DNA of 64,000 bases from NCBI RefSeq assembly GCF_007995155.1, contig NZ_CP042593.1, forward strand, positions 972,001 through 1,036,000. Reading direction: 5' to 3'. Source of the stretch: Cytobacillus dafuensis (GTDB lineage Bacteria > Bacillota > Bacilli > Bacillales > Cytobacillaceae). The notes under the pieces were generated by a model, which was not told the origin of the DNA, searched no databases, and saw nothing but the letters and a program-made list of their open reading frames with translations. Position 1 is the stretch's first letter, and each line of letters starts with the position of its first letter. Shown here one piece after another: positions 7,612 through 23,810 of this stretch. Made by a program: the position numbers and the translations under genes.

Positions 7612-7622
7612 AAAGGTAAAAG

Positions 7623-7653
7623 CCCTCTGCTTGGATAAGCAGGGGGTTTTTTT
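7623..7653 (+). terminator. Rho-independent terminator of the permease gene
   Basis: CCCTCTGCTT and AAGCAGGGGG form a ten-pair stem around GGAT (one G-U pair), followed by seven T residues. Confidence 0.92.
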
Positions 7654-7858
7654 GCTCGGATTTTAGCATTCGATGAATCCCTTTTTTATACCAATTTTTT
7701 TTAAAAAAATAGTTAACCTATTACTCCAAAATGATTAAAAAAAAATTCTATGTCAATACTTGTAGCTACTCAATTTATTGAGGTGAATTCCTTATTTTCA
7801 AAATGCATTTTCGTATTAAATCTACGTTAGATGTAGGTATAAAAAAGGAGGTCATTAC

Positions 7859-8608: not shown

Positions 8609-8619
8609 AGGAGTACATT

Positions 8620-10332: not shown

Positions 10333-10350
10333 AATTAGGAGGCTCATAAT

Positions 10351-10542
10351 ATGGGATTATCATCAATAGGAATTCCGGGTCTAATCATTATCCTTGTAAT
10401 TGTATTAATCATATTCGGACCAAAAAAACTGCCTGAAATCGGTGGAGCATTTGGTAAGACATTATCAGAATTTAAAAGATCGACAAAGGGCGTGTTGGAT
10501 GATGAGGATACAACTTCAATGCCTGAAAAAAAGTCTGAGTAG
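10351..10542 (+). CDS. tatA: Sec-independent translocase subunit TatA
   Basis: The 63-residue protein has one N-terminal membrane helix (about 5-20), the invariant FGPKKLPE hinge (20-27) and an amphipathic helix with [17 protein letters not shown]. It forms the pore part of the Tat pathway, which exports folded, cofactor-loaded proteins. It has AGGAGG 8 bases before the ATG. It lies between the GMC flavoprotein and tatC, so the operon carries its own translocase, as Bacillus subtilis phoD does with tatAd-tatCd. Confidence 0.96.
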
Positions 10543-10559
10543 TGCGATAAGGTGATTGT

Positions 10560-11345
10560 ATGGATCCATACCAAGAGCATAAAGCGAATGCAGTTGCTGA
10601 ATTATCTCAAAAAAAGATAAAAGAAGGAGCAATAAAAGAAGGATCACTCACAGATCATTTGGCTGATTTACGAAAGCAACTCATAAAAAGTGCTAGTGTG
10701 TTCATCTTCTTTTTGGTCATTGTATTTTCGACTATTAATTGGTGGCTCCCCTATGTAACGAGGGGAAATGATCTCGTAGTGCTTGGACCATTCCAAGTGA
10801 TAAAGCTTTATACATCAATTTGTGTCACTTTATCACTTGGTCTTTCCTTGCCTTTCTTCATTCATTTCATTTGGACTTTTGTAAAACCAGGTTTGAATTC
10901 GAAAGAGGTTAGGTTTTTAGGCATTTATGCACCAGCCATGTTTACTTTATTTATATTAGGTTTAACCTTCGGATATTATGTCGTCAATCCATTAAGCTAT
11001 CAGTTTCTTGTTAATTTTGGAGCTATGAATTTTGATATTATGGTGTCTGCTTCTGAATACGTACATTTTCTTATCATGACAACAGTTCCTTTAGGTTTTT
11101 TATTCGAGCTTCCAATTATTGTATTGTTTTTGAACTCAATAGATGTACTGTCAGCAGCTGCATTAATTAAAGTTCGGAAATGGTCATACTTAGTTATCGC
11201 TGTTGTTTCGGCGCTGATTACGCCGCCCGATTTCATCAGCCAATTGATTGTACTTGTGCCAATGGCTCTGTTATATGAAATGAGTATCTATCTTGTTCGC
11301 AGAATAGAAATTCGGAGAGAAAAACAATCGAATGAAAATAGTTAG
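10560..11345 (+). CDS. tatC: Sec-independent translocase subunit TatC
   Basis: This 261-residue polytopic protein carries the TatC signature in order: LTDHLADLRKQL near the N-terminus (the twin-arginine docking region), a conserved FVKPGLNSKE loop and VITPPDFISQ-type motif late. It recognises the RR signal and with TatA makes a minimal Gram-positive Tat system. It starts 17 bases after tatA with AAGGTGATTGT ahead. A clear terminator follows, ending the four-gene operon. Confidence 0.96.
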   Translation: MDPYQEHKANAVAELSQKKIKEGAIKEGSLTDHLADLRKQLIKSASVFIFFLVIVFSTINWWLPYVTRGNDLVVLGPFQVIKLYTSICVTLSLGLSLPFFIHFIWTFVKPGLNSKEVRFLGIYAPAMFTLFILGLTFGYYVVNPLSYQFLVNFGAMNFDIMVSASEYVHFLIMTTVPLGFLFELPIIVLFLNSIDVLSAAALIKVRKWSYLVIAVVSALITPPDFISQLIVLVPMALLYEMSIYLVRRIEIRREKQSNENS

Positions 11346-11364
11346 TATGGACCAATCTATGCTT

Positions 11365-11399
11365 ACAGTCGGTGCGATATATGCACTGACTGTTTTTTT
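11365..11399 (+). terminator. Terminator of the GMC-Tat operon
   Basis: ACAGTCGGTGC pairs with GCACTGACTGT (one G-U pair), followed by seven T residues. Confidence 0.9.
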
Positions 11400-11502
11400 A
11401 CACATTATGAAAGTATAAATTGCCAGCGCAGAAGATGATTCGACGCAGTTCCTAATTTTAGGAATTGAGTGAATGAGCAGATGCTCATGATAGCTGTGTG
11501 TA

Positions 11503-11880
11503 TTATTTTACAACATCAAAAGGCCATTCATTCATGCCTGTTTTTAAGTTGTATATATTGGTAAAACCATTGTCTATTAATATTTGTGCAGCTTGGCCAG
11601 AGCGGTTACCACTACGACATACTAATAGATACGATTTTTCTTTGTTAAGTTCGGAAATGCGTGTCTCAAGCTCTTGAAGTGGTAAAAGTGAAGATTCGGG
11701 GATATGTCCCTCCGCATACTCCTCAAGTGTTCGAACATCAATGACTTCTACTTTATTATCTTCAATTAATTTTTTTGCTGCTTCGTTATCAATATTCTCA
11801 TATGAAGCCTTGCTTGAACATGCAGTAAGTGCAAGTAATAAAGATAATGCCAGTAATAGAAAAAGCTTCTTTTTCATCAT
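11503..11880 (-). CDS. Rhodanese-domain lipoprotein
   Basis: An N-terminal signal ends in a lipobox (LTAC, Cys near residue 20), so the mature protein is tethered to the outer face of the membrane. The remainder is a single rhodanese domain (VEVIDVRTLEEYAEGHIPES) with active-site loop CRSGNRS, which carries the sulfur-accepting cysteine. Such exported rhodaneses are thought to handle sulfur or redox chemistry outside the cell, but the substrate is unknown. ATG at 11880 (or 11877) follows AAGGG; a GTG at 11886 is in frame. It is convergent with tatC and next to the second tatA on its own strand. Confidence 0.9.
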   Translation of the reverse strand: MMKKKLFLLLALSLLLALTACSSKASYENIDNEAAKKLIEDNKVEVIDVRTLEEYAEGHIPESSLLPLQELETRISELNKEKSYLLVCRSGNRSGQAAQILIDNGFTNIYNLKTGMNEWPFDVVK

Positions 11881-12057
11881 TTTCACCCTTGTTGTTTATT
11901 AATTTGGTCAAATAAACATGCCTCTTCCCAAAATCAATTATAATGAAATGCCTAAGTTTGCAAAATTTAATCTCTTCATTTAAAAAAATGGCATCCAAAA
12001 GTTACGGGGAACTTCTGAACACCATATTAGAATAAGCTATGTTACATTATCGTTCTA

Positions 12058-12267
12058 TTAAATTGTTTTCATGCTTTCAGTCGTAGTCTTACTAATTTCC
12101 TTAACAACCTCTGCTTCCTCATCCATTAAGCCTTTAGTTGATTTCTTAAATTCTCTTAATGTTTGTCCTACTGCACGTCCTAATTCTGGAAGTTTTTTAG
12201 GTCCAAAAATAATTAGTGCTAGAACGAGAATAATAATTAAACCGGGAATCCCAATGTTAGATAGCAT
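12058..12267 (-). CDS. tatA: Second TatA-family subunit
   Basis: The 69-residue protein shares the [26 protein letters not shown] core with the tatA at 10351; the two helices are nearly identical and the tails differ. AAGGAG lies 9 bases before the ATG. It stands apart from tatC, 0.7 kb away on the opposite strand, so it can be made independently. Bacilli often have more than one TatA; this one may serve the nearby Tat substrates under other conditions. Confidence 0.95.
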
Positions 12268-12424
12268 AATTGTCTCTCCTTTTTATCGTTTGAATAGACT
12301 GTTTGCCTATTTTATCAAACAATTATTGTATTACTAATATAATAAACCTCTATGGATGATAAGGATATGCTAATAGTCACATGTTTTGATTAAATTTTTC
12401 GCAGATTAATTGAGTTTCTATTTA

Positions 12425-12856
12425 TCAATCAAACGATTGATTTTTTTCAATATAATCTAACACCATCTTCACATTGCTTGCTTGACCAACAAGGGTTGAG
12501 TATTTATATGGAGACTTTTCGTAGTCTTCTCTACATATTGTTGGTAAGTTCGTGAGTTGCTGATAATTAGCGCGTACATTTTTTTCGGCATCGGTAGAAA
12601 TTTTTATTTTGCTAATATCTCTTTCGAATTTGTCATAAATTTGATGAATCTCTTCACTTGCTGGTTTTTCCGGGAGAGAATGCAGATTTTTATATAAATT
12701 TTGATAAGGTTCTTGAATTGCTTGTAAATATTCTTCATAGGTCACAACACCTTCTGAATCGTTCCCTAAAAAAACAGTGACGAAGCCAATAATGGATAAT
12801 CCGAGTCCCGCTATGATTATCTTGCTGTGTTTATTCAGATTAAGAATGTATTTCAT
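12425..12856 (-). CDS. Hypothetical small membrane-anchored protein
   Basis: I do not recognise the family. The 143-residue product has one hydrophobic N-terminal segment (about 13-32) and then a soluble, mostly helical, charged part probably outside the membrane. There is a single cysteine near residue 109 and no lipobox. A purine-rich GAGGATGAGAG precedes the ATG. It is divergent from the sensor kinase at 13120 and shares with it a 260-base region that contains an inverted repeat, so both may answer to the same regulator. Confidence 0.7.
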   Translation of the reverse strand: MKYILNLNKHSKIIIAGLGLSIIGFVTVFLGNDSEGVVTYEEYLQAIQEPYQNLYKNLHSLPEKPASEEIHQIYDKFERDISKIKISTDAEKNVRANYQQLTNLPTICREDYEKSPYKYSTLVGQASNVKMVLDYIEKNQSFD

Positions 12857-12963
12857 TCGTCTCTCATCCTCATCAAATAGTAGATTCCTTTCGCAGTGTA
12901 TATCGTTTCAAGTTGTTGAATACATAATTTAAGGAAATTATATAATGTAAAAATAGATTATTA

Positions 12964-13031
12964 TTATGAAGCTTCCAACGAATTTATGAAACTTTTAACC
13001 TTATACAACGAATTTGACCAAAGTTTCATAA
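12964..13031. promoter_or_regulatory. Inverted and direct repeat, candidate response-regulator operator
   Basis: TTATGAAACTTT (12984-12995) has a perfect inverted copy AAAGTTTCATAA (13020-13031), 24 bases apart. A further similar half-site, TTATGAAGCTT, begins at 12964, exactly 20 bases before the first. Two in-phase direct sites plus an inverted one in the divergent region ahead of a kinase-regulator pair fit an OmpR-family operator. Confidence 0.5.
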
Positions 13032-13119
13032 TGTGTTCAATGATATTTGAGTACATATGCATTTTTTTATTTATACTATCTTTAGTAATGCTAAATGACT
13101 ATGAAAAAGGATAATGGAC

Positions 13120-14997
13120 ATGAACAATATGACAATAAAAAAACAGCTAACAATTATTTTCATTATCGTGACTATTCTCCCGATTAGTATCCTTGGAATT
13201 TTTCATAGTATTGAAATGACCGATTTTATTACTCAATCCTCAAAAAACCAAAAGTATGCGACTCAACGCCTTGCTGAATCCGTTGAAACGTATGTGAATT
13301 TTCATGTGAACTATATTGAATCAATTAGTTATAATCTCTCACAATCGCAAAATTGGAGTATCGACTATATGACGATGCTTTTAAAAGGTGGAAAAATAAA
13401 ACTCCCTGGTTTTATCGAATTATATGTTGGAAATAGCGACGGGAAGATTATTGCTTCATATCCACGGAATAGCCAAGAGGGAGAGTTTTTGTTAGGTGAA
13501 GATATTAGCAATCGAGATCATTTTAAAGAAATAAAAGCGACAGAACGTACAGTTGTTACTCCCATTCTTTTAGGGAGGCATTCGAAAAAGCCGCTTATTA
13601 TGATAGAAGCGCCTATTTTACAAGAAAGTCAATTTCAGGGTTATGTTCTTGGGACGTTGGATTTAACAGCATTAAAAAAAATCATTATTGACTATGATTA
13701 TGGAATAGGGGCTTATCCAGTTGTGGAAGACCAAGATCATAAAGTCATTTATCATCCCGTTCTGCCGCTAATTAGTAAAAACTATGAATTGAAAAATCTC
13801 ATGCAGCAATATCATTTTGAAGATCGATTGCTCGGAGATGGGGAGTTCTATTCAACTGTCAATCATCGCTATGAATATTTAAGCTTTGAAAAGATTCCGT
13901 CACTGAATTGGGTTGTTTATGTTTCGCAGCCGACTTCATTTAAAACAGAAAGTATTCGTAATGCGATGATCCTCTTAGGGATTGTGCTAGTTGCAACCCT
14001 TATTTTTACACAAAACTTAGCAAAATTATTAGCTCAAAGAATGCTAGATCCAATTAATGTTCTAATTGAATACTCGGCAGCCATTGAACGTAAATCATTT
14101 TCTCTAGAGAATTTTGATAAAATCCAAATGACGAACGCGGCAAAAGAATTTAATTTACTTTTGAACCGCTTTTATGAAATGGGAAAGAATGTTTTTCGCA
14201 ACCGAGAGGAGCTAATTAAGCTAAACCTTGATTTAGAAAGACGAATTGCGGAACGAACGGAAGGCTTAGTAAAGGATATAACGAAGGAAAAGGAAATTGA
14301 TCGTTTAAAAAACCAACTAATTTCATTTACCTCTCATGAGTTTAAGACTCCAATAACAACATTAAGTGGGAGCATAGAAACGTTACTTAGGAAAGATATC
14401 GAGTGGGAAGAGGATTTTATTGATGAAATTCTGCTTGGAATGAAAGACGATATTCAAAGATTAGAGCAGCTAACGAGTGATTGGATTGATATTGTCAAAA
14501 TAGATTCTAACGCTCTAGTGCTTATTAATGAACAGATGAGGATTGGCTCCTTTATTGAAGGTGTCATTCAAGGTTTAAAAAAACCTCCGTACACCGAAGC
14601 GAAGATTGTTTTTAAACGATGTGAAGCATCGGAGCATATAGTGGCCTTTGATATAAAAAGGGTTGAACAAGTTATTAGGAATATTATTACGAACGCAATC
14701 CGCTATAGCAAAGGGAACCCGACTATTTTTATTAGGGTATATGAGGATAAAGAGTCCATTTATATTGATTTCAAGGATAATGGAATCGGAATAGCAGAAG
14801 AACATATTCCGAAAATATTCGATAGGTTTTTCCATGTAGATGCTTCACGCACAAGAAAAACAGGCGGTACTGGTCTAGGCTTAGCTATTTGCAAAGGGAT
14901 TATAGAAGCCCACGGATGGGAAATCAAAGTAGTAAGTCAATTAAATAAGGGCAGTACCTTTACGATTGTAATACCTAAAAATGAGCAGGTGAAGTAA
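13120..14997 (+). CDS. Sensor histidine kinase with extracytoplasmic PDC/Cache sensor domain
   Basis: Two membrane segments (about 10-30 and 285-305) flank a ~250-residue outside domain of the double-PDC/Cache type (LGEDISNRDHFKEI and MIEAPILQ segments), which usually binds small organic acids or amino acids. Inside, a linker leads to the dimerisation helix with phospho-acceptor His in FTSHEFKTPITTL, then the ATPase domain (N box NIITNAIRYS, DNGIGIAEEHIPKIF, GGTGLGLAICKG). ATG at 13120 is better spaced from AAAAAGG than the in-frame ATG at 13114. Its regulator follows 3 bases after the stop. Placed between the Tat/GMC genes and the flavoprotein-cytochrome operon, it may sense the electron donor or acceptor of either. 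Confidence 0.92.
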   Translation: MNNMTIKKQLTIIFIIVTILPISILGIFHSIEMTDFITQSSKNQKYATQRLAESVETYVNFHVNYIESISYNLSQSQNWSIDYMTMLLKGGKIKLPGFIELYVGNSDGKIIASYPRNSQEGEFLLGEDISNRDHFKEIKATERTVVTPILLGRHSKKPLIMIEAPILQESQFQGYVLGTLDLTALKKIIIDYDYGIGAYPVVEDQDHKVIYHPVLPLISKNYELKNLMQQYHFEDRLLGDGEFYSTVNHRYEYLSFEKIPSLNWVVYVSQPTSFKTESIRNAMILLGIVLVATLIFTQNLAKLLAQRMLDPINVLIEYSAAIERKSFSLENFDKIQMTNAAKEFNLLLNRFYEMGKNVFRNREELIKLNLDLERRIAERTEGLVKDITKEKEIDRLKNQLISFTSHEFKTPITTLSGSIETLLRKDIEWEEDFIDEILLGMKDDIQRLEQLTSDWIDIVKIDSNALVLINEQMRIGSFIEGVIQGLKKPPYTEAKIVFKRCEASEHIVAFDIKRVEQVIRNIITNAIRYSKGNPTIFIRVYEDKESIYIDFKDNGIGIAEEHIPKIFDRFFHVDASRTRKTGGTGLGLAICKGIIEAHGWEIKVVSQLNKGSTFTIVIPKNEQVK

Positions 14998-15000
14998 ATC

Positions 15001-15693
15001 ATGAAGCAAAAAATAATGATTGTGGATGATGAGCCAAAAATTTTAAGACTTGTGTCTGCGAATTTGAGGTCGCAAAATTACGATGTTCTCACCTATACAA
15101 ACGGATATGAAATGTTAGAAGATTATGATTGCATCATGCCAGATTTAGTCCTCCTTGATATTTTAATGCCGGAAATTGACGGATTTGAAGTACTTGAAGC
15201 TTTACGTTCTTTTACGAATGTTCCAATTATTATGCTATCAGCTTGCCATGATGCTGCTGATAAAGTCACTGCATTGGATTTAGGATCTGACGATTATATG
15301 ACGAAGCCATTTACATTGGATGAGCTTTATGCTCGTATTCGTGCTGTGCTAAGGAGAACAGGAAACCAGTCTCAACCGACTGTGATTAACACCTCAAAAA
15401 AAATAAAAAACTTAGAAATCGATTTTCAAAAAAGGCGAATCTTTGTTGATGGAAATGAGACAGATGTTTCTAATACAGAATACAAGCTATTCGCCTATCT
15501 ATCTAGTAATCAAGGAAAAGTTATAACTCATGAAGAATTGTTAACCCAAATATGGGGACCAGAATATCGAAACGATATTGACTATTTACGGGTTACGATT
15601 GCAAGGCTAAGGCAAAAATTAAGAAAGTCGAACGGGGAAAATAAAATAGAATATATTGTGACGTATCCAGGTGTTGGATATATGATTGATTAG
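15001..15693 (+). CDS. OmpR/PhoB-family response regulator
   Basis: The receiver domain (1-120) has the acidic pocket (VDDE near 8-11), phospho-acceptor Asp in LLDILMPEIDG and the Lys of MTKPF. A winged-helix DNA-binding domain follows (about 135-230) with the TEYKLFAYL and PGVGYMID signatures. It is the partner of the kinase whose stop lies 3 bases upstream. Its likely targets are the operator upstream of the kinase and perhaps the flavoprotein operon downstream, which starts 350 bases beyond its stop. Confidence 0.94.
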   Translation: MKQKIMIVDDEPKILRLVSANLRSQNYDVLTYTNGYEMLEDYDCIMPDLVLLDILMPEIDGFEVLEALRSFTNVPIIMLSACHDAADKVTALDLGSDDYMTKPFTLDELYARIRAVLRRTGNQSQPTVINTSKKIKNLEIDFQKRRIFVDGNETDVSNTEYKLFAYLSSNQGKVITHEELLTQIWGPEYRNDIDYLRVTIARLRQKLRKSNGENKIEYIVTYPGVGYMID

Positions 15694-15727
15694 AAAATAA
15701 TTAGTCGTTCACTCGACATTTGTAAGG

Positions 15728-15758
15728 GCATCTCCACAAGGAGGTGCTTTTTTTTTTC
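15728..15758 (+). terminator. Terminator of the kinase-regulator operon
   Basis: GCATCTCC and GGAGGTGC (one G-U pair) form a stem around ACAA, followed by a long T run. Confidence 0.93.
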
Positions 15759-15777
15759 GTATCTTTGAAGTTGGAGA

Positions 15778-15912
15778 ACTGTCTAGCTTCAGCGCCTAGA
15801 GCCTAGTCATACGATAAGTCAACATTGACTCGTTATCACTCGTCGTGTTTCCTACATCTCAGTCGAGGTCAGTCCAGATCATACGTCGATGACCAAGGGG
15901 CTTCCGTTTTTC
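15778..15912. repeat. Interspersed intergenic repeat resembling a common Bacillus element
   Basis: The segment starts with CTGTCTAGCTTCAGCGCCTAG and ends with GACCAAGGGGCTTCCG. Both ends match, from memory, an intergenic repeat found in many copies in Bacillus genomes. It is noncoding, more GC-rich than its surroundings and sits directly after a terminator. Mobility is inferred only. Confidence 0.6.
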
Positions 15913-16016
15913 TGTTTGTGACAGCTTATTGACTGTAATGTTTTTGTAATTTCTTTGACAGGAGTTGTTATGAGGATGTAAGGAGCAATTTATTATGATA
16001 TTTACATATAGTAAAT

Positions 16017-16032
16017 TGTGAAAAAATTCACA
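16017..16032. promoter_or_regulatory. CRP/FNR-type palindrome upstream of the flavoprotein-cytochrome operon
   Basis: TGTGA-AAAAAT-TCACA is a perfect CRP/FNR-family box, and the dyad extends one base further on each side (TTGTGAA...TTCACAA). It ends 16 bases before the ATG at 16049, abutting the ribosome binding site. Bacillus Fnr uses this consensus to control anaerobic respiration. The position is too close to the start codon for ordinary activation near -41, so a repressor or roadblock role is also possible. Confidence 0.6.
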
Positions 16033-16048
16033 AAGAGGAGTGTCGAGA

Positions 16049-17596
16049 ATGATGGAAGAAAAAACGACTCGTCTTGAATTATTAAAGCAGGGAGCAGTTG
16101 TTTGTGTCGCACTGGCTGCTGGAGGACTAGTACCTATAAATGTATTAGGGAAGGATACAAAAAAAACGGCAAAATCCTCACCAACTAGCTTTAAGTATGA
16201 CGAACTATTCGACGTCATCGTTGTAGGAAGTGGGTTGTCTGGTACAGTTGCCGCCATTACTGCCGCGGAAAAAGGGAATAAGGTATTAATGGTCGAGAAA
16301 ATGGATTTCCTAGGGGGAAGTTCAATCAATCAAAATTTCAATCTTGCTTGTCCAGAAAGTAAGGAACAAAAACAAAAAGGCATAAAAGACAGTCATGAAA
16401 CTATGGATAAGGATATCCAAAAAATTGCCGAGAACTATGGAAATCCTGAATTAGTAATGAAGATGATCAAAAATAGTATTGATTTTTATACCTTGTTGGA
16501 AAAGGTCGGTATTAAATTTGAACTGCTAAAGGATGTTAGAGGGCATTCTGTACCTCGGACGTTATGGCTAAGTAACGGAGGCAAACAAGTAATTGAAAAA
16601 TTGCATTCATATTTAAATGGTAAATGCAGCATTCGCAAACAGATTAAGGTTAATGAGGTTTTAATTGATGATAATGGGCGCGCTGTTGGTGTAAAGGTTC
16701 GAGAACATTATGTTTGTTCAAATGAGCATGATGATGATCTATTAAATAAAACAGGGGTAGAAAAAGTTTACGGAGCTAGAAAAGGCGTTATTTTGGCAAA
16801 TGGTGGCTTTGCTTTTGATAAGACATTTATTTCAGGAGAAGCAAAATATTTCGGTGGGTTATCAGAAATGTCTATTTCCGCCCATCGTGGAGCGACAGCT
16901 GGTTTGTTGAAATCAATGATTTTAAAAGGAGCTCATCCTGTTAATACATCGTTATACCATTTCGCCTATCCTTTGTATGAGCGTGATTTTTATTATGGAT
17001 TAATGGTTGATGCAGCAGGTGAAAGATTAGCGGACGAGGGCAATCCAAGTAAATTTGGACGCATTGCTTATAAATCAAAAAATAAAAATGAAGGAAAAGC
17101 ACCAGTATGTCTATTTGATCAAACAGGATTTGATTTAATATCTGACAAGCAAAAAAGAGACGCAGCGACACAGACTGGAACCATTAAAAAGTTTGATTCA
17201 ATTGAGCAGCTGAGCAATGAATTTAAGCTCCCGTTAGCTACAGTGCAGAAAACAATTTCTGAATATCATAGCACAATTGATGCTAAAAAAGATGAGAAGT
17301 TTATGAAAATGCTTGACCAATTAAACGGTGCAGCCATAAAGAAAGCCCCATTTTATGCAATAAAAGTCGAACCTGAGCTTAATTATACGACGGGTGGTCT
17401 CAGAATTGATAAAAAAGCTCGTGTGCTTAGAATCGCTGACGAAACGCCATTTAAAGGCCTATTTGCTGCAGGGGAAGTAACAGGTGGAATCCATGGTGCG
17501 CAAATATTAGAGGGACTTAACACGCTTGATTGTGGTGTGTATGGCATAATCGCAGGCGAACAGGCTTCTAAAATGGAAGCAATCGATCTTGGTTAA
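16049..17596 (+). CDS. Fumarate-reductase-like FAD flavoprotein (flavocytochrome c flavin domain), substrate unknown
   Basis: The FAD_binding_2 fold is clear: VIVVGSGLSGTVAAITAAEKGNK (about 50-72), a central capping domain, and C-terminal GLFAAGEVTGGIHGA. The N-terminus has a hydrophobic stretch after TTRLELLKQ, which resembles a Tat signal with TR in place of RR. Against Shewanella flavocytochrome c, compared from memory, key residues differ: the acid-catalyst Arg position reads GNPS (Pro333), the substrate His region reads NYTTGG, and the C-terminal Arg is lost (GAQILEG). It is therefore unlikely to reduce fumarate. ATG 16049 lies 8 bases after AGAGGAG. The tetraheme cytochrome gene follows after 16 bases, giving an obvious electron donor. 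Confidence 0.88.
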   Translation: MMEEKTTRLELLKQGAVVCVALAAGGLVPINVLGKDTKKTAKSSPTSFKYDELFDVIVVGSGLSGTVAAITAAEKGNKVLMVEKMDFLGGSSINQNFNLACPESKEQKQKGIKDSHETMDKDIQKIAENYGNPELVMKMIKNSIDFYTLLEKVGIKFELLKDVRGHSVPRTLWLSNGGKQVIEKLHSYLNGKCSIRKQIKVNEVLIDDNGRAVGVKVREHYVCSNEHDDDLLNKTGVEKVYGARKGVILANGGFAFDKTFISGEAKYFGGLSEMSISAHRGATAGLLKSMILKGAHPVNTSLYHFAYPLYERDFYYGLMVDAAGERLADEGNPSKFGRIAYKSKNKNEGKAPVCLFDQTGFDLISDKQKRDAATQTGTIKKFDSIEQLSNEFKLPLATVQKTISEYHSTIDAKKDEKFMKMLDQLNGAAIKKAPFYAIKVEPELNYTTGGLRIDKKARVLRIADETPFKGLFAAGEVTGGIHGAQILEGLNTLDCGVYGIIAGEQASKMEAIDLG

Positions 17597-17612
17597 GTAG
17601 GGAGGGACAAAC

Positions 17613-18071
17613 ATGAAAAAATTATTAATTGCACTAGGCGTCGTAATGATTGCCGGTATTGCCTTTTTAATAGAGGGTATGAATACAGATGAAAGTAGCA
17701 AAAAAACTGATGTTAAAATGCCTGAAACAATTTTATCAGCAGCTGAACTTATGGATCTTAAAGCAGATTATCCTTCAAATAATGAGCAACATGAAAAATT
17801 AGGGTTTGATTGTGTCACTTGCCATGGTGATTTTAAAGATCCGAATGAAGTTCCCCCTATGGAAAATGAACAGTGTTTTACTTGCCATGGTGATTCTAAA
17901 AAAGTGGCAGAACGCACATCGTTTTTGGATGAAAATGAAGTGAATCCACATGATGGATTTCACCACAAGGAAGATTTAGATTGCGCTACTTGCCATCGCG
18001 AACATAAACCATCGACAAACTATTGTGCAAACTGCCATGATACAAAAGTTTGGATGAAAGATACTCCGTAA
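17613..18071 (+). CDS. Membrane-anchored tetraheme cytochrome c (cytochrome c3-like)
   Basis: Four heme-binding CXXCH motifs occur in 152 residues (CVTCH, CFTCH, CATCH, CANCH) with extra His residues for bis-His ligation. A single N-terminal hydrophobic helix (about 3-20) anchors it outside the membrane. This is the arrangement of the N-terminal domain of Shewanella-type flavocytochrome c, here as a separate protein. It should shuttle electrons from the NapC-like quinol dehydrogenase downstream to one or both flavoproteins. GGGAGGG precedes the ATG. Multiheme c-type cytochromes of this class are uncommon in Bacillaceae. Confidence 0.93.
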   Translation: MKKLLIALGVVMIAGIAFLIEGMNTDESSKKTDVKMPETILSAAELMDLKADYPSNNEQHEKLGFDCVTCHGDFKDPNEVPPMENEQCFTCHGDSKKVAERTSFLDENEVNPHDGFHHKEDLDCATCHREHKPSTNYCANCHDTKVWMKDTP

Positions 18072-18090
18072 GGAAAGGTGGTCAAAGAAA

Positions 18091-18690
18091 ATGAATGAGA
18101 AAAAAGGATTAAACATAAAGCGTTTTTTTAAAGGAAAAGCGGGTCTCTATACAACGATGCTCGTTACCTCATTTGCAACCATTTTATTTGCTTTCCTGTT
18201 TACTGAGGTCATTCATGCAACAGGAGATGTGAAATTTTGCAGCAGCTGTCATGAAATGGGAAAGTTTGTTGAAACATATGAACGTGATACGCATGGTGGA
18301 GCTAACGCAGTTGGTGTGAAGGCAGATTGTACTACATGCCACTTACCACAGGATTCATCAGTTGATTATGTGGCAGCAAAAGTTGTTTCAGGTACAAAAG
18401 AGGTTGTTAAGCACCTCACTGGAAATTACTCTGAAAAAGAATACTATGAAAATCGTAAAAATAGAGAAGAATTTGTCTATTCTAGTGGCTGTATCTCCTG
18501 CCACCAAGAAATAGAAAGCGGTAATTTAAAAACAGATAATGAGAAGGCAAAGAAAATGCACACTTATTATTTAAGCAAAAAAGGAACGGATACAAAGATA
18601 GAGTGCGTATCCTGCCATACAGATGTAGGTCATAACGGGGAATTACGCCATGAATTAATTGATATGGACACCTACCCAAATGAGGAATAG
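18091..18690 (+). CDS. NapC/NirT-family tetraheme cytochrome c, quinol dehydrogenase
   Basis: One N-terminal membrane helix (about 18-40) is followed by four CXXCH motifs (CSSCH, CTTCH, CISCH, CVSCH). The first reads CSSCHEM, the Met placement typical of the NapC/NirT/CymA/NrfH family. Members take electrons from menaquinol at the outer membrane face and pass them to a terminal reductase. At 199 residues it is family-sized. It lies between the small tetraheme cytochrome and the second flavoprotein, 19 and 14 bases apart, so the four genes form one electron chain: quinol, NapC-like, tetraheme, flavoprotein. Confidence 0.94.
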   Translation: MNEKKGLNIKRFFKGKAGLYTTMLVTSFATILFAFLFTEVIHATGDVKFCSSCHEMGKFVETYERDTHGGANAVGVKADCTTCHLPQDSSVDYVAAKVVSGTKEVVKHLTGNYSEKEYYENRKNREEFVYSSGCISCHQEIESGNLKTDNEKAKKMHTYYLSKKGTDTKIECVSCHTDVGHNGELRHELIDMDTYPNEE

Positions 18691-18704
18691 AAGGAGGAAT
18701 AACG

Positions 18705-20234
18705 ATGGATCGTCGTACCTTTTTAAAAGCTAGTGCTATGTCTGCAACAGCCACTGCTCTCTCAGTTTCTAGTTTTGCACCTTTAGTCGATGCTGAGGAA
18801 AACACAGATGTGAAGTTTGATGAAGTATTTGATGTAATAGTTGTCGGAAGTGGTATCGCTGGAACGACTTCAGCGATCACTGCTGCTGAACATGGAAATA
18901 AAGTGCTTGTTGTTGATAAGATGAACATTTTTGGTGGAACTTCACTTGTTAGCGGGTTGAATTTTTCTTGTGTCGGAAGTGATGAACAAAAGGCACAAGG
19001 TATAAAAGATAGTCCAGAGCTGATGGCTGAAGATATGAGAAAAGTATCAGATGATTATGGTGATCCAGAATTGGCTCTTACGGTTGCAAGAACGACGGAA
19101 CGATTCTATCATTTTTTAAAGGACAGAGGGATTGTGTTCAAGCAGTTCAAACAGCTTGGCGGACATTCCGTTGCTAGGGCTGTTTGGGCAGGGGGCGGAG
19201 CATATGTCATTAGACCTTTGCATGATTATATTCAAAAAAATCTTTCAGACAGGCTTACGATGCGTAAACGCTGCAAGGTAGACGACATTGTATTTAAAGA
19301 TGGACGTGCGATTGGGCTTAAAGTACGGGAAAATTACTATTTCAACTTTGATGATCCTGAGCATGATGATGAGACGAATAAAACGGGTAAGGTGAAATAT
19401 ATTGGTGCCCGGAAAGGAATTGTCTTCGCAAGTGGAGGCTATTGTCGCGACAAAAAGCTATTAGGAGCTGAGTCAGATATTCTTGCAGGGACGAATAGTG
19501 ATGCGAATCCTGGTGCTCGTTCTGGAACATTAAAAATGCTAATGAAGCATGGTGCACAAGCCGTGAACTTATCTTTATTCCGATTAGCGTACCCAATCCC
19601 AACAGAGGATTTAATGTGGGGAATGCTTATCAATCCAGAAGGCAAACGCTTCGTTAATGAGTTTGGAAATCGTAATACGATTGGGATGACGATTCTAAAA
19701 GAAAAGAAAAAATTTGATGGAAAAGCACCATTATTAATATATGACCAAACAGGTGCAGATAATTTCCATGATAAACAGAGATTCACACTGAGTATGGAAG
19801 CGAAAAATGGATATGAAGGAACGATGTATAAATTAGATACGCTTGAAGAAGTAGCGAAATTCTTTGAATACGAACCGAAAATATTGAAGAAGGCAGTCGA
19901 TGATTATAATGCTGCGATTGATAGCGGGGTAGACAAAGAGTTTGGAAAGGACTTTACGCAAATGAATGGAGCAGCATTGAAGAAAGCTCCTTTCTATGCA
20001 ATGCGCTTGACACCAAAATGTACGTATACACCTGGTGGAGTAAGAATTACGAAAGAAGCACAAATGATTAATAGTCAAACTGGCGAGTTGTTTGAAGGAT
20101 TGTTTGCTGCGGGAGAAGTAACTGGTGGAGTTCATGGAGCGATGCGGTTAACAGCATGCTCAATGCCGGACTGCGGTTCGTTTGGTCTCATTTCTGGAGA
20201 TAATGTTTCAGCGATGAAGCCAATAGATCTATAG
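18705..20234 (+). CDS. Tat-exported fumarate-reductase-like FAD flavoprotein, substrate unknown
   Basis: The N-terminus MDRRTFLK is a twin-arginine motif, with a hydrophobic stretch and likely cleavage after VDA near residue 30. The FAD_binding_2 fold follows (VIVVGSGIAGTTSAITAAEHG) and ends with GLFAAGEVTGGVHGAMR. Compared from memory with flavocytochrome c fumarate reductase, the acid-catalyst Arg (R323, in NEFGNRN) and the C-terminal carboxylate-binding Arg (R481) are kept. The substrate His is replaced by Thr-Tyr (T440-Y441). This suggests reduction of another unsaturated carboxylate. It is a clear paralogue of the product at 16049. AAGGAGGAA lies just ahead of the ATG, and a terminator follows. 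Confidence 0.91.
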   Translation: MDRRTFLKASAMSATATALSVSSFAPLVDAEENTDVKFDEVFDVIVVGSGIAGTTSAITAAEHGNKVLVVDKMNIFGGTSLVSGLNFSCVGSDEQKAQGIKDSPELMAEDMRKVSDDYGDPELALTVARTTERFYHFLKDRGIVFKQFKQLGGHSVARAVWAGGGAYVIRPLHDYIQKNLSDRLTMRKRCKVDDIVFKDGRAIGLKVRENYYFNFDDPEHDDETNKTGKVKYIGARKGIVFASGGYCRDKKLLGAESDILAGTNSDANPGARSGTLKMLMKHGAQAVNLSLFRLAYPIPTEDLMWGMLINPEGKRFVNEFGNRNTIGMTILKEKKKFDGKAPLLIYDQTGADNFHDKQRFTLSMEAKNGYEGTMYKLDTLEEVAKFFEYEPKILKKAVDDYNAAIDSGVDKEFGKDFTQMNGAALKKAPFYAMRLTPKCTYTPGGVRITKEAQMINSQTGELFEGLFAAGEVTGGVHGAMRLTACSMPDCGSFGLISGDNVSAMKPIDL

Positions 20235-20248
20235 ATGAATAGAAAAGA

Positions 20249-20281
20249 AGCTGTCCGGCGAGTGGACAGCTCCTTTCTTTT
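20249..20281 (+). terminator. Terminator of the flavoprotein-cytochrome operon
   Basis: AGCTGTCC (20249-20256) pairs with GGACAGCT (20264-20271), followed by a T-rich tail. Confidence 0.88.
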
Positions 20282-20282
20282 T

Positions 20283-20404
20283 AATAACTTTCAATATATG
20301 TTTGGACTAATTGCACCTGTACTGGCTGCAGGAAACACAATTGTTTATAAGCCATCTGAAGTGACTCTCCTTACCCCTACAAAGCTCTTTGAAATTTTAA
20401 AGGA
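20283..20404 (+). pseudogene. Aldehyde dehydrogenase fragment
   Basis: In the frame starting at 20283 the translation contains LAAGNTIVYKPSEVT and LFEILKE, the conserved cofactor-binding stretch of aldehyde dehydrogenases (Lys of KPSE). Only about 40 codons survive, with no start, no catalytic Cys region and no ribosome binding site. It is a relic, not a functional gene. Confidence 0.75.
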
Positions 20405-20572
20405 AACATTACCTTCTTTACCTTCTATATTATCTGGTTGGCTTCGCGTTTTAATAGCATAAGCTTTTCAACATTAGGGATGGTTTGCTACATCATAGTA
20501 CTCGCTTTAATTGCTATCATCATTCAAATAGGCGGCGAAAAAATTGCAGTTTATGATAAAAGAAAATCATAA
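20391..20572 (+). pseudogene. C-terminal fragment of a membrane transporter
   Basis: In the +2 shifted frame an open stretch runs to TAA at 20570-20572. It reads as a membrane-protein tail: an aromatic hydrophobic run, WLASRFNSISFSTLG, a second hydrophobic run and a basic end (GGEKIAVYDKRKS). There is no start codon with a binding site. It adjoins the aldehyde dehydrogenase fragment in another frame, as though a deletion had fused two genes. I cannot name the transporter family. Confidence 0.55.
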
Positions 20573-20692
20573 GTTAGTATTATGACAATATTGTAAGATT
20601 TTCCTCTACCCTTGTAATCTAATTCACTTTCTCGAAATGTCAAACTTCATTAAGATTTGATACAGAAATGCGAGTTTAGGAGAGTGATTAGA

Positions 20693-21901
20693 TTGAACAC
20701 ATTGCAGCCGGTGGAACAGAATAAACGCATTCAGATTGTGGATGTGCTGAGGGGGATTGCCATTTTAGGAATATTGTTAGTGAATATGGCACACTTTAGT
20801 TATCCTGATGTATATTTATCGATGGTTGGAAAGGAAAACTTTTTTACCGAACAATGGAATACTGCTGATCATATTGTTCGTGTGCTTTTGGATATTTTTA
20901 TCCAAATGAAATTTATATTGCTGTTTTCTTTATTATTTGGCTTCGGCATGGTTGTGATGATGGAACGGGCCATAGAAAAAAACAGAAGATTCGTACCCGT
21001 CTATATTCGTAGATTGCTGGCCTTGCTTCTATTCGGAGCGATACATGCCTTTCTTATTTGGGATGGCGATATTTTAATGGATTATGCCTTACTTGGCTTT
21101 GTTCTGCTGCTTTTTAGGAAGGCTAAGGCAAGGACATTAGTGATTTGGGCTATTCTTTTTTACACACTGTTTGCTTTACCTTTTGTATTATCAAGTTTCG
21201 GTTCAGCTGCACAGCCTGGGATGGAAGAGTGGCAACAATCAATGGAGGGGGAGGCAAAGCAAGCATTAGAGGTGTATGGGAATGGAAGCTTCATGGACAT
21301 TGCTGAGCAGCGTATACATGATCGCATGATGTATATGTCAATGAATGGCATGCTTTCAGGTCCACTTTTATATTTTTATTCTTCGCTGCCATACTTTAGT
21401 ATGTTCTTAGTCGGAGCGGCCATGGCGAAAGCAAGAATTCTACATAAGCCTGAAGAGAAACGTAAAGTTTTAAAGCAAATATGGATATTAGGATTCATGA
21501 TCGGTGTGCCTGCAAATCTTTTATTTGGTTTAAAAGGTCAGGAAATCTGTATTTTAATTGGTGCTCCATTCATGATGCTTTTTTATATAACATCGATTAC
21601 CTATTTGTTTAATAAAACTCGGATGAAAAAACTATTGCTCCCATTTTCAGCTGTTGGAAAAACAGCCTTTACGAATTATCTTATGCAATCAATAATTGGA
21701 ACCTTGATTTTTTATAACTATGGTTTTGGTTTATATGGAAAGGTGAATCCATTTAACGGGTTTCTGCTAACAATCGGAATTTTTGCCATTCAGATGGTAA
21801 TCAGCCATTTTTGGGTTAAATGCTTTGCATTCGGACCATTTGAATGGATTTGGCGTATGATAACCTATTTAAAACCACAACCTTTTCTAAAAAAATTATA
21901 G
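20693..21901 (+). CDS. DUF418 family membrane protein
   Basis: The ~402-residue polytopic protein begins with RIQIVDVLRGIAILGILLVNM, the hallmark of the YeiB/YxaH group. It has about nine hydrophobic segments and ends in the DUF418 domain (AVGKTAFTNYLMQSIIGTLIFYNYGFGLYG, then FGPFEWIWRMITY). The function of the family is unknown; a distant relation to membrane acyltransferases has been proposed. Start choice: TTG at 20693 lies 9 bases after AGGAG; the in-frame upstream ATG at 20657 has no site. It is monocistronic. Confidence 0.88.
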   Translation: MNTLQPVEQNKRIQIVDVLRGIAILGILLVNMAHFSYPDVYLSMVGKENFFTEQWNTADHIVRVLLDIFIQMKFILLFSLLFGFGMVVMMERAIEKNRRFVPVYIRRLLALLLFGAIHAFLIWDGDILMDYALLGFVLLLFRKAKARTLVIWAILFYTLFALPFVLSSFGSAAQPGMEEWQQSMEGEAKQALEVYGNGSFMDIAEQRIHDRMMYMSMNGMLSGPLLYFYSSLPYFSMFLVGAAMAKARILHKPEEKRKVLKQIWILGFMIGVPANLLFGLKGQEICILIGAPFMMLFYITSITYLFNKTRMKKLLLPFSAVGKTAFTNYLMQSIIGTLIFYNYGFGLYGKVNPFNGFLLTIGIFAIQMVISHFWVKCFAFGPFEWIWRMITYLKPQPFLKKL

Positions 21902-21912
21902 TCTTGGAGTAT

Positions 21913-21938
21913 AGCTCGCCAATTTGGCGAGTTTTTTC
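21913..21938 (+). terminator. Terminator of the DUF418 gene
   Basis: CTCGCC and GGCGAG form a stem around AATTT (extendable by G-U and A-T pairs), followed by TTTTTT. Confidence 0.88.
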
Positions 21939-22000
21939 AGCTTCTATATCTTTTGTATTGTAAAATAATAATAGTCAGGCTGAAAGGAGTATCAAAAAGT

Positions 22001-22699
22001 ATGTATAAAATTTATGTTGTGGAAGATGATCGCAAAATGGCTTCGATTATTTGTCAATATTTTAAGAAGTATGGCTATGATGCACATTATGCTGAGGATT
22101 TTGATTGTGTTAAGCAAGAGTTTATTCAATATCGGCCTGATCTTGTTATATTAGATATCAATCTGCCTTCCTTTGATGGCTTTTATTGGTGCAGACAAAT
22201 CCGTGGATTATCGAATATACCTATCATCTTTTTATCAGCTCGCTCAGGAGAGATGGATCAAGTATTTGCCATTGAAAACGGTGGAGATGACTATATCACG
22301 AAACCATTTCATCTTGAGGTTCTTCTCGCGAAAGTGAAGGGTGTCATCCGCAGAACTTATGGAGATTATGCGATTCCATCAGATCATAATGTCTTTGAAA
22401 TGGATGGACTATTCTTATATCGAGATAAAAATATCATTGAATATAATGGAGAAAAAACGGAGTGCAGCCCAAAGGAGTTTCGCCTGCTTGATTGTTTAGC
22501 GAAGAAAGCTGATAAAATTGTTTCAAGAGATAAGCTTTTGGAAGCTATTTGGGATGAAATCGATCTTGTGGATGACAATACGTTAAATGTAAATATTAGA
22601 AGAGCTCGTAAAAGGCTTGATGAAATAGGGATTCACGATGCGATTCAAACGATGCGCGGACAAGGATATATGTTGAAAAAAAGCTGGAGGCGGCCATAA
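22001..22699 (+). CDS. Bce-type OmpR-family response regulator
   Basis: The receiver domain has VVEDD, phospho-acceptor Asp in VILDINLPSFDG and the TKPF lysine. The winged-helix domain (about 130-230) ends in IQTMRGQGYMLK. Length and neighbours place it in the BceR/YxdJ/PsdR group, which switches on peptide-antibiotic ABC transporters. ATG 22001 lies 11 bases after AAAGGAG; upstream in-frame codons have no site. Its stop overlaps the kinase start by one base. The likely target is the TGACA-N4-TGTCA site at 23939, ahead of the ABC genes. Confidence 0.92.
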   Translation: MYKIYVVEDDRKMASIICQYFKKYGYDAHYAEDFDCVKQEFIQYRPDLVILDINLPSFDGFYWCRQIRGLSNIPIIFLSARSGEMDQVFAIENGGDDYITKPFHLEVLLAKVKGVIRRTYGDYAIPSDHNVFEMDGLFLYRDKNIIEYNGEKTECSPKEFRLLDCLAKKADKIVSRDKLLEAIWDEIDLVDDNTLNVNIRRARKRLDEIGIHDAIQTMRGQGYMLKKSWRRP

Positions 22700-23766
22700 T
22701 GAGCTTTTTTCAATTTTTATTCGATAGGTTCGCCTATGTGATTGTTTACTTTATTACTATCATTCTCGTTCTGCTAGTCGTCAAGCTAGGATTGTTCGAA
22801 AGTGGAGTATCTATTTCTACTAGTAATCTTTTTTATATCGGCCTTTTATCTATTGTCTTGCTTTTGATTTATTTGTTTATAGATTACTTAAGACAGAGAC
22901 CTTTTTATGTTGGACTAAACAATGCTTCAAAAGAAGCCGACCTTCAATCATTTTTAAAAATGACAGCAGTAACGCGAGAACAGCAAGTGTTTAAACAGCT
23001 TTGTGAAGAGGCTTATCAAGATTATGCTGAGAAGTTGTATGTGTATGAGGAACAGCAAAAGCAAAACTATTATTTTACGAATCGGTGGACACATCAAATG
23101 AAGACACCTTTGTCAGTTATTCGTCTCATGCTTGAGGAAGAAGAGGAATGGACAAAGGAAGAGCTATTAGAGCAAATTGATGAAGAAACATTGAAGCTGC
23201 AAGATGGATTACAAATGATGCTTTCAACTATTCGCATGCAAAAATTCGAGCTTGATTTTTCTGTTGAAAAAATTGAACTGCTATCGTTTATTCGCTCTAT
23301 TTTGCATGATAAACGTAAAACCTTTATACGCTATCGTATTTTTCCAAAGCTTGAAACAGATTATGAGGAAATGATGATTGAGTCTGATAAAAAATGGCTG
23401 ACCTTTGTATTGGAACAATTATTACATAATGCATTAAAGTATTCACATGGGAATAAGAGCGAAGACTCTAAGTATATAAAAATAGCAATAGAGTTAACTG
23501 AAAATAAAATTAAGCTGACAATCACAGACAAAGGCATCGGAATCAAACGGGAGGACCTCCCTAGAGTATTTGATCCTTTTTTTACAGGGGAAAATGGCCG
23601 AAGGCTGCAGGAGTCAACGGGAATGGGGCTTTATTTAGCGAAACGGATTTGTGATCAATTACATCATCCGATTATGCTTCATTCAGTTGAAAATGAAGGG
23701 ACAGTGGTTGAGCTTCATTTTCAACAATCATTTGATTATTATGAGTTTGCACGTGATGAAAGGTGA
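22699..23766 (+). CDS. Bce-type intramembrane-sensing histidine kinase
   Basis: Two membrane helices close together at the N-terminus (about 10-30 and 40-62) leave almost no outside loop, the intramembrane-sensing layout of BceS. Phospho-acceptor His lies in WTHQMKTPLSVI; the ATPase domain shows LLHNALKYS, DKGIGIKREDLPRVFDPF and STGMGLYLAKRI. Kinases of this group do not sense the drug themselves; they read the activity of the partner ABC transporter. The 355-residue length is normal. It is translationally coupled to the regulator. Confidence 0.92.
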   Translation: MSFFQFLFDRFAYVIVYFITIILVLLVVKLGLFESGVSISTSNLFYIGLLSIVLLLIYLFIDYLRQRPFYVGLNNASKEADLQSFLKMTAVTREQQVFKQLCEEAYQDYAEKLYVYEEQQKQNYYFTNRWTHQMKTPLSVIRLMLEEEEEWTKEELLEQIDEETLKLQDGLQMMLSTIRMQKFELDFSVEKIELLSFIRSILHDKRKTFIRYRIFPKLETDYEEMMIESDKKWLTFVLEQLLHNALKYSHGNKSEDSKYIKIAIELTENKIKLTITDKGIGIKREDLPRVFDPFFTGENGRRLQESTGMGLYLAKRICDQLHHPIMLHSVENEGTVVELHFQQSFDYYEFARDER

Positions 23767-23810
23767 CAAGATTATCATCTCAGAGGGTAAACAAAGTATA
23801 TTACCTTTTC

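What the first reader, a model, noticed from the sequence alone, without database searches (positions are those of the whole stretch)
16049..20234. Split flavocytochrome c respiratory module in a Bacillus-type genome
Four tightly spaced genes encode flavoprotein, tetraheme cytochrome c, NapC/NirT quinol dehydrogenase and a second flavoprotein (gaps 16, 19 and 14 bases). The parts of Shewanella-type flavocytochrome c plus CymA are all present, but on separate chains and doubled on the flavin side. Menaquinol oxidation outside the membrane coupled to reduction of an organic acceptor is the simplest reading. Multiheme cytochromes of this kind are rare in Bacillaceae. This is my best candidate for an undescribed system.
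Basis: partly seen in the sequence, partly recalled or inferred. Interest (0 to 1): 0.82.

Follow-up and report, generated by a model that had tools for sequence, protein, structure and literature searches.

The report
Respiratory reductase with arginine-less flavoprotein twin
A Bacillus-family bacterium carries a gene set that probably lets it pass electrons to an organic compound outside the membrane when oxygen runs out; such split systems are known, but this one includes a second flavoprotein that has specifically lost the two arginines its relatives use for catalysis.

Summary
In detail: four tightly packed genes encode flavoprotein FP1, a tetraheme cytochrome, a NapC/NirT quinol dehydrogenase and flavoprotein FP2, between two terminator-like hairpins and behind a dCache kinase/response-regulator pair. 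FP1 is what is unusual. In 14 of 14 family members the proton-donor arginine (FccA Arg402) is proline, the substrate-binding arginine (Arg544) is Ile/Leu, and the twin arginine is gone. The 206 other aligned homologues all keep Arg402, and 204 of 204 readable keep Arg544. FP1's nearest outside relative still has everything. The seven-gene block occurs in 4 of 193 family genomes, each with both flavoproteins, and is absent at the same site in a near relative. In 4 of 4 loci the control region shares half-sites, a -10-like box and a Rex-type operator. Best reading: an anaerobic menaquinol:organic-acceptor reductase in which FP2 is catalytic and FP1 a conserved non-catalytic partner. New variant of a known kind; substrate unknown; no structure could be predicted.

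The parts
12425..12856 (-). Small divergent ORF (143 aa, N-terminal hydrophobic segment by eye, no Pfam match), conserved partner of the block
   Evidence: 45-52% identical ORF, divergent from the kinase gene in L115, L116 and L117; no Pfam match
13114..14997 (+). Sensor histidine kinase with dCache domain
   Evidence: PF02743, PF00512, PF02518; dCache kinases at the same place in L115, L116, L117
15001..15693 (+). OmpR/PhoB-type response regulator
   Evidence: PF00072 + PF00486; 76-83% identical orthologues in three loci
15724..15751 (+). Terminator-like hairpin after the regulator genes
15934..15949 (+). Candidate response-regulator site, half-sites 11 bases apart (TGTAAT-N5-TGTAA)
   Evidence: aligned in 4 loci, exact to TGTNAT-N5-TGTAA in 2 of 4 and one mismatch in the other 2; pattern chosen after seeing it: 3 in window, 0.27 expected, 0 of 100 shuffles reach 3
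15966..15981 (+). Second candidate response-regulator site (TGTTAT-N5-TGTAA)
   Evidence: exact to TGTNAT-N5-TGTAA in 4 of 4 loci; as above
15994..15999 (+). -10-like box TATGAT, 11 bases after the last half-site
   Evidence: same 11-base spacing to TATCAT, TATGAT and TAGAAT in the other three loci, read by eye; start. The plain sigma-70 scan does not list it
16016..16033 (+). Rex-type operator TTGTGAAAAAATTCACAA between -10-like box and start codon
   Evidence: TTGTGA-N6-TCACAA in 4 of 4 loci; 9 such palindromes in the 4.9-Mb genome, 0 for the reversed control pattern; consensus quoted in PMC4162614; PF06971 protein in genome
16049..17596 (+). FP1: flavocytochrome-c-type flavoprotein without catalytic arginines and without a twin arginine
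   Evidence: Pro333 at FccA Arg402, Ile486 at Arg544; no RR in first 30 residues in 14 of 14
17613..18071 (+). Tetraheme cytochrome c, like the heme domain of Shewanella flavocytochrome c
   Evidence: 4 CXXCH; PF14537; 1d4d chain residues 12-90, E 7e-7
18091..18690 (+). NapC/NirT-type tetraheme protein, presumed membrane quinol dehydrogenase
   Evidence: PF03264 113.3 bits; CSSCHEM first heme site, 4 CXXCH; N-terminal hydrophobic segment by eye
18705..20234 (+). FP2: catalytic-type flavoprotein reductase with Tat signal (DRRTFLK)
   Evidence: TIGR01813 318.1 bits over cut-off 285.45; Arg323 and Arg481 kept; PF10518 TAT_signal 21.8 bits, just under its cut-off of 22.7; RR in 8 of 8 orthologue clusters
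20249..20271 (+). Terminator-like hairpin after FP2

Best explanation
The block encodes an inducible anaerobic respiratory reductase working on the outer face of the cytoplasmic membrane. The dCache kinase senses a small extracellular ligand, and its response regulator activates a promoter that a Rex-type repressor frees when the NADH/NAD+ ratio is high (both inferred from sites). The NapC/NirT protein oxidises menaquinol, the tetraheme cytochrome carries the electrons, and FP2 hands a hydride from FAD N5 to the C=C bond of an unsaturated organic acid, Arg323 giving the proton and Arg481 holding the carboxylate (by homology). FP1 arose by duplication of an FP2-type enzyme. It keeps most of the conserved framework, but has lost both catalytic arginines and its own Tat twin arginine. 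It most likely works as a non-catalytic, FAD-binding partner of FP2 (structural, electron-relaying or substrate-gating) and is perhaps exported bound to FP2. The FP1-FP2 contact, FAD in FP1 and FP1's exact task are inferred, not shown. The substrate is unknown and probably not fumarate.
For: Operon anatomy and bracketing hairpins. FP2 keeps both arginines; the equivalent contacts in UrdA (Arg411, Arg560) are called essential and were tested by single substitutions (PMC7921117, passages). Cytochrome matches the FccA heme domain; NapC/NirT. FP1: Pro at Arg402 in 14 of 14 and Ile/Leu at Arg544 in 14 of 14, against Arg in 206 of 206 and in 204 of 204 readable others. Of 31 near-invariant columns FP1 loses these two only, and no other of 24 clusters loses either. 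No twin arginine in 14 of 14, against 8 of 8 FP2 orthologue clusters with one. FP1 family plus P0015, which keeps RR and both arginines, forms one branch (100/100), joined to the FP2 clade at 99/97 (midpoint-rooted). Both flavoproteins in each of the 4 of 193 genomes with a match. dN/dS of FP1 0.085 and 0.145 in the 2 of 6 pairs not saturated. Rex-type operator and promoter layout in 4 of 4 loci. Genome has a PF06971 (Rex-type) and a ResB protein.
Against: FP1's loop after the GGxS motif differs (INQNF where FP2 has LVSGL), so FAD binding by FP1 is likely but not certain. Losing 2 of 31 columns is not unusual in number: FccA loses 3, UrdA 2, the P0214 cluster 2 (other columns). FP1 passes the flavocytochrome c model only just (285.8 against 285.45 bits). 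FP1 evolves 1.6-2.5 times faster than FP2 (dN 0.12-0.31 against 0.08-0.13 in 6 pairs), at a pace like that of the two cytochromes. FP1's missing RR raises the question whether it leaves the cell at all. The palindrome also fits FNR-type half-sites (recalled), and 21 of 100 shuffles of the window hold a match with up to one mismatch. NapC did not match any solved NrfH/NapC chain by phmmer at E up to 1.
Confidence: 0.58

Rival explanations
1. FP1 is an active reductase for a second, different acceptor (for instance one without a carboxylate), using other residues (Arg312, His304, Lys335) for protonation and binding; the operon then serves two acceptors through one cytochrome chain.
For: FP1-specific residues are invariant in 14 of 14: His304, Glu311-Arg312-Asp313, Lys335, Arg338; ERD at this place in 14 of 14 FP1 and 0 of 206 others. 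Most framework columns are intact. A Campylobacterales and a Syntrophaceae locus carry two flavoproteins that both keep the arginines, so doubling for two substrates is plausible.
Against: Both key arginines lost together while the 206 other aligned homologues keep Arg402. The Tat motif is missing in the same 14. FP1 is not found without FP2 in the 193 family genomes.
Confidence: 0.3
2. FP1 is a decaying duplicate with no function.
For: Faster evolution than FP2 in 6 of 6 compared pairs; catalytic and export residues lost.
Against: Full-length (510-518 aa) in the 14 clusters down to 63% identity. 29 of 31 near-invariant columns kept. dN/dS 0.085 and 0.145 in the 2 unsaturated pairs of 6. First gene of the operon in 4 of 4 loci.
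Confidence: 0.05
3. The module runs in the oxidative direction or serves electron export rather than organic-acceptor respiration.
For: NapC/NirT relatives can feed several partners (recalled for CymA); no substrate is known.
Against: FP2 active-site arginines are those of reductases. No further multiheme ORF within the block. The Rex-type site fits use under reducing conditions.
Confidence: 0.07

Closest known systems
Wolinella succinogenes flavocytochrome c (FccA flavin subunit, heme subunit; a NapC/NrfH-type third gene is recalled)
   Same: Separate Tat-exported flavoprotein (515 aa, RRDLIK) and small tetraheme cytochrome (146 aa, four hemes), as listed in PMC4427408 (passages). A protein named Wolinella flavocytochrome c, P0084, is 35% identical to FP2 and 34% to FP1.
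   Different: No arginine-less twin is known to me; P0084 has PHHTMGG where FP2 has TYTPGG.
Geobacter sulfurreducens AM-1 methacrylate reductase Mrd/Mcc
   Same: Flavoprotein and tetraheme cytochrome on separate chains in one transcription unit (PMC4427408, passages).
   Different: No second flavoprotein and no NapC gene named in the passages seen.
Eggerthella lenta Cgr1/Cgr2 and Gordonibacter/Rubneribacter FP2 relatives
   Same: Predicted Tat-exported flavoprotein with a NapC/NirT-like heme protein in a Gram-positive (PMC5953540, passages). Gordonibacter sp. An230 and Rubneribacter loci carry a tetraheme ORF before a 55-56% FP2 relative.
   Different: Single flavoprotein. Cgr2 contains [4Fe-4S] cluster(s). 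The tetraheme gene here scores only 26.2 bits against a Cgr1 cut-off of 340.
Shewanella flavocytochrome c fumarate reductase FccA plus CymA
   Same: Same parts: c3-type tetraheme domain, flavin domain, NapC/NirT donor (CymA recalled).
   Different: FccA fuses heme and flavin domains. FP2 lacks His365 and His504; FP1 lacks Arg402 and Arg544.
Enzyme/dead-paralogue pairs such as trypanosomatid AdoMetDC-prozyme
   Same: Active enzyme paired with a catalytically dead paralogue (PMC5201418, start of abstract in listing).
   Different: Unrelated protein and pathway; analogy of principle only.

Membership tests
Flavocytochrome c flavin subunit (TIGR01813) | Score over the curated cut-off (285.45 bits) | tested here: met
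   FP2 318.1, FP1 285.8 bits
Flavocytochrome c flavin subunit (TIGR01813), FP2 | Proton-donor and substrate-binding arginines (FccA Arg402, Arg544) | tested here: met
   FP2 Arg323 and Arg481
Flavocytochrome c flavin subunit (TIGR01813), FP1 | Proton-donor and substrate-binding arginines (FccA Arg402, Arg544) | tested here: not met
   FP1 Pro333 (Pro in 14 of 14) and Ile486 (Ile in 11, Leu in 3 of 14)
Fumarate reductase FccA | Histidines 365 and 504 | tested here: not met
   FP2: at 365 Tyr296 in the HMMER alignment or Ala in MAFFT, no His either way; at 504 Thr440. FP1 has Asn445 at 504
Fcc/Mrd-type split flavocytochrome module | Flavoprotein, tetraheme cytochrome and NapC/NirT on separate, adjacent chains | tested here: met
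   one transcript not shown
Fcc/Mrd-type split flavocytochrome module | Tat export motif on the flavoprotein, FP2 | tested here: met
   DRRTFLK; RR in 8 of 8 orthologue clusters
Fcc/Mrd-type split flavocytochrome module | Tat export motif on the flavoprotein, FP1 | tested here: not met
   TTRLELLK; no RR in 14 of 14
Fcc/Mrd-type split flavocytochrome module | Reduction of methacrylate, acrylate or another unsaturated acid | not testable with these tools
   needs enzyme assay
NapC/NirT (NrfH, CymA) quinol dehydrogenase | PF03264 match, four CXXCH, CXXCHXM first site, N-terminal membrane segment | tested here: met
   113.3 bits; CSSCHEM and four CXXCH; CXXCHXM as a mark is recalled, membrane segment by eye
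NrfH nitrite reductase small subunit (TIGR03153) | Score over cut-off 134.2 bits | tested here: not met
   70.8 bits
Cgr1 (NF051471) | Score over cut-off 340 bits | tested here: not met
   26.2 bits for the tetraheme gene
Rex operator | TTGTGAAnnnnTTCACAA near the promoter | tested here: met
   exact in window; the other three loci have TTGTGA-N6-TCACAA with one mismatch to the full consensus; binding not tested

The most novel reading that the evidence does not exclude
An extracytoplasmic respiratory reductase that needs a dedicated FAD-binding pseudo-flavoenzyme as its partner. FP1 takes electrons from the tetraheme cytochrome or gates the substrate for FP2, has given up catalysis, and is exported by riding on FP2's Tat signal. 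I found no such two-flavoprotein arrangement in the listings.
Probability: 0.33. Interest if true: 0.66.

Novelty: new variant of a known kind. Interest (0 to 1): 0.45.

Why it matters
Anaerobic respiration on organic acids through split flavocytochromes is known from Gram-negatives, and a related reductase pair from gut Actinobacteria. A compact, regulated, patchily distributed version in Bacillaceae-type genomes widens its range. The conserved loss of precisely the two chemistry-making arginines in one of two paired flavoproteins makes a clean test case for how dead paralogues are kept in respiratory systems. The relative P0015, which still has both arginines and a twin arginine, offers the 'before' state.

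Tried and rejected
Rejected: 'split flavocytochrome c is new'; 'multiheme cytochromes rare in the family', tested for NapC/NirT; fumarate as the likely substrate (no His at 365 or 504); plain doubling with two equal enzymes; membership in Cgr1 or NrfH models.

Passages of PMC2680327 and PMC11334425 added nothing. Work on gut-bacterial respiratory flavin reductases is recalled, was not found, and is not used as evidence. GC content does not set the block apart (0.369 in block and rest; operon 0.389). The promoter scan finds 28 sites against 28.6 expected, so it gives no signal. dS is saturated in most pairs, so selection was judged from few pairs.

Rows dropped or limited: FP1's duplicate (identical to P0001); 60 of 220 rows given to the tree; conservation counts rest on the 217 proteins listed (best 120 each of 7757 and 1058 hits) plus FP2, FccA and UrdA, not on all hits. 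In one search, 26 of the 27 flavoprotein ORFs found were printed; one (L056, Arthrobacter, 30% identity, no heme ORF nearby) has Tyr at both arginine columns, so relatives outside the flavocytochrome type can lack them too. FP1 and FP2 on one contig: shown for 4 genomes; inferred from equal contig lengths for P0007, P0008 and P0012 as well; not tested for P0002-P0006, P0011 and P0014.
Full report
Observation. Pfam and NCBIfam give FAD_binding_2/flavocytochrome c, Cytochrom_c3_2, Cytochrom_NNT and FAD_binding_2/flavocytochrome c. Each cytochrome has four CXXCH sites, which none of 20000 shuffles reached. The tetraheme gene matches the N-terminal heme domain of Shewanella flavocytochrome c (1d4d, E 7e-7), and both flavoproteins match its flavin domain. 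Hairpins with T-tracts sit after the response regulator (15724-15751) and after FP2 (20249-20271), so FP1-cytochrome-NapC-FP2 is probably one transcription unit. Co-transcription itself was not tested.

Surroundings. Upstream lie a dCache histidine kinase, an OmpR/PhoB-type response regulator and a divergent small ORF. In three other genomes the same seven genes stand in the same order with different flanks (L115, L116, L117). Of 193 genomes in the family, 4 (3 of 25 genera) have FP1 matches at E up to 1e-60, and each of the 4 has both FP1 and FP2. In a sample of the order only the window's own genome has a match, 1 of 397. In a sample of the phylum, FP2 at that threshold finds 2 of 398, the second a 38% relative. 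In the window's genus, 1 of 36 genomes (its own) has FP1; the best match in another genome is 28% identical.

Presence and absence. A near relative, G001, matches the flanks at 96.5% (window 7056-11333 and 20401-23780). For the stretch 11334-20400, BLASTN shows only one 140-base inverse match at 75% in the 16.5 kb read, and the G001 genome has no FP1 match at E up to 1e-60. In its place are a long ORF that looks like ThiC and transposase-like fragments (read by eye, no family search). The block was therefore gained or lost between close relatives. GC content does not mark it as foreign.

Control region. Alignment of the regions before FP1 from the four loci shows, in the same order: two pairs of half-sites 11 bases apart (the second exact to TGTNAT-N5-TGTAA in 4 of 4, the first in 2 of 4 with one mismatch in the others; the spacing is typical of OmpR/PhoB regulators, recalled), a -10-like box 11 bases after the last half-site in 4 of 4, and TTGTGA-N6-TCACAA in 4 of 4. 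The last is an exact Rex consensus in the window (consensus as quoted in PMC4162614, one passage). It lies between the -10-like box and the start codon, where a repressor would act. The window has one match with up to one mismatch against 0.22 expected (21 of 100 shuffles also have at least one). The whole genome has 9 such palindromes, and the reversed control pattern has none. Of the other eight, one precedes a Tat-signal molybdopterin-type oxidoreductase and one a di-heme peroxidase-like protein, by eye; the rest are less telling, and one lies inside an ETF-like gene. The genome has a PF06971 (Rex-type) protein and ResB for cytochrome c assembly. FNR uses similar half-sites (recalled), so the regulator is not settled.

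The split is not new. Wolinella FccA and its heme subunit, and Geobacter Mrd/Mcc, are separate chains (PMC4427408, passages), and Cgr1/Cgr2 is a Gram-positive example (PMC5953540, passages). In loci fetched here, FP2-type, tetraheme and NapC-type ORFs stand side by side in Photobacterium proteolyticum (L036), Aeromonas rivipollensis (L038) and a Campylobacterales genome (L053), and a tetraheme ORF precedes FP2 relatives in Gordonibacter and Rubneribacter (L035, L037). NapC/NirT proteins occur in 115 of 193 genomes of the family. NrfH in Bacillus is described in PMC3475470 (passages).

What is unusual: FP1. The 217 listed homologues were aligned with FP2, FccA and UrdA and weighted by 24 clusters. 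Among 31 columns at least 97% conserved outside the FP1 family, that family loses two: Arg402 and Arg544 of FccA numbering. Other clusters lose other columns (FccA 3, UrdA 2, P0214 cluster 2), so it is which columns, not how many, that stands out. Counted directly, Arg402 is Pro in 14 of 14 FP1 members and Arg in 206 of 206 others. Arg544 is Ile or Leu in 14 of 14 and Arg in 204 of 206 others, the remaining 2 being gapped there. In UrdA the equivalents Arg411 and Arg560 contact the substrate carboxylate, Arg411 is the proposed proton donor, and single substitutions of both were assayed (PMC7921117, passages). A third arginine of FP2 (Arg293; Arg in 109 and Gln in 94 of 206) is His in 14 of 14 FP1. 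FP1 also lacks a twin arginine (0 of 14), unlike FP2 orthologue clusters (8 of 8) and 175 of 190 other homologues over 480 residues. The closest outsider, P0015 (47% identical), keeps TRRRFL and both arginines. By equal contig length it probably shares a 4.9-kb contig with P0016, an FP2 orthologue. The tree puts P0015 beside the FP1 family (100/100) and that branch beside the FP2 clade (99/97), which includes P0134 of Arabiibacter massiliensis; the root is at the midpoint. The simplest history is duplication first, and loss of the twin arginine and the catalytic arginines later, on the branch to FP1. FP1 is open and appears constrained, but changes 1.6-2.5 times faster than FP2, at a pace like that of the two cytochromes. 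In two other loci with two flavoproteins (L053, L054) both copies keep the arginines.

Mechanism. Shown by sequence: domain content, heme sites, arginine pattern, conserved block, conserved upstream sites. Inferred from family knowledge: menaquinol to NapC/NirT to tetraheme to FP2 to an unsaturated acid. Inferred with less certainty: FP1 as a non-catalytic, FAD-binding partner of FP2, perhaps exported by hitch-hiking. The same window holds a possible parallel, a Tat-signalled small subunit next to a GMC oxidoreductase whose N-terminus shows no twin arginine. Counter-possibilities: FP1 kept charged residues of its own (His304, Glu311-Arg312-Asp313, Lys335, Arg338) and may act on another acceptor, and its loop after GGxS differs from FP2's, so FAD binding needs testing. 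The substrate of FP2 is open; the missing histidines 365 and 504 speak against fumarate.

Verdict. A good first-stage catch with the wrong headline. The architecture is a known kind; the arginine-less twin, the conserved regulatory block and its patchy presence make it a new variant. No structure prediction was possible.

Noticed in passing
window 7859-11345: Tat-linked oxidoreductase cluster: gluconate-2-dehydrogenase subunit-3-like protein with a Tat motif (SRRDFLK), GMC oxidoreductase whose N-terminus shows no twin arginine, a TatA-like ORF at about 10351-10540 (by eye), and TatC 10560-11345.
   Followed up: partly
window 20235-20462: Short aldehyde dehydrogenase fragment (matches PF00171 positions 144-182 only) overlapping the hairpin after FP2; looks like a remnant at the edge of the block.
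   Followed up: no
L143 8774-12235 (relative G001): At the site where the window has the block, a near relative has a ThiC-like ORF and transposase-like fragments (names by eye). Window 33047-33205 matches L143 11744-11960, in and beside those fragments, at 85-95%.
   Followed up: partly
G000:C1:3798859-3799245 (L034): Second NapC/NirT gene of the genome, next to an ORF with four CXXCH; looks like nrfHA (name by eye).
   Followed up: no
L119 (G000:C1:222091) and L122 (G000:C1:1557276): Rex-type palindromes also precede a Tat-signal molybdopterin-type oxidoreductase and a di-heme peroxidase-like protein (names by eye), hinting at a redox regulon of respiratory genes.
   Followed up: partly
L115 and L116 versus window 13114-14997: The orthologous kinases in L115 and L116 show a PAS match that the window's kinase lacks; the L117 kinase is longer (848 aa by mechanical start) but shows no PAS match.
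   Followed up: no
L054 (Syntrophaceae MAG): Two flavocytochrome-type flavoproteins in a row followed by an ORF with seven CXXCH motifs; both flavoproteins keep the arginines.
   Followed up: no
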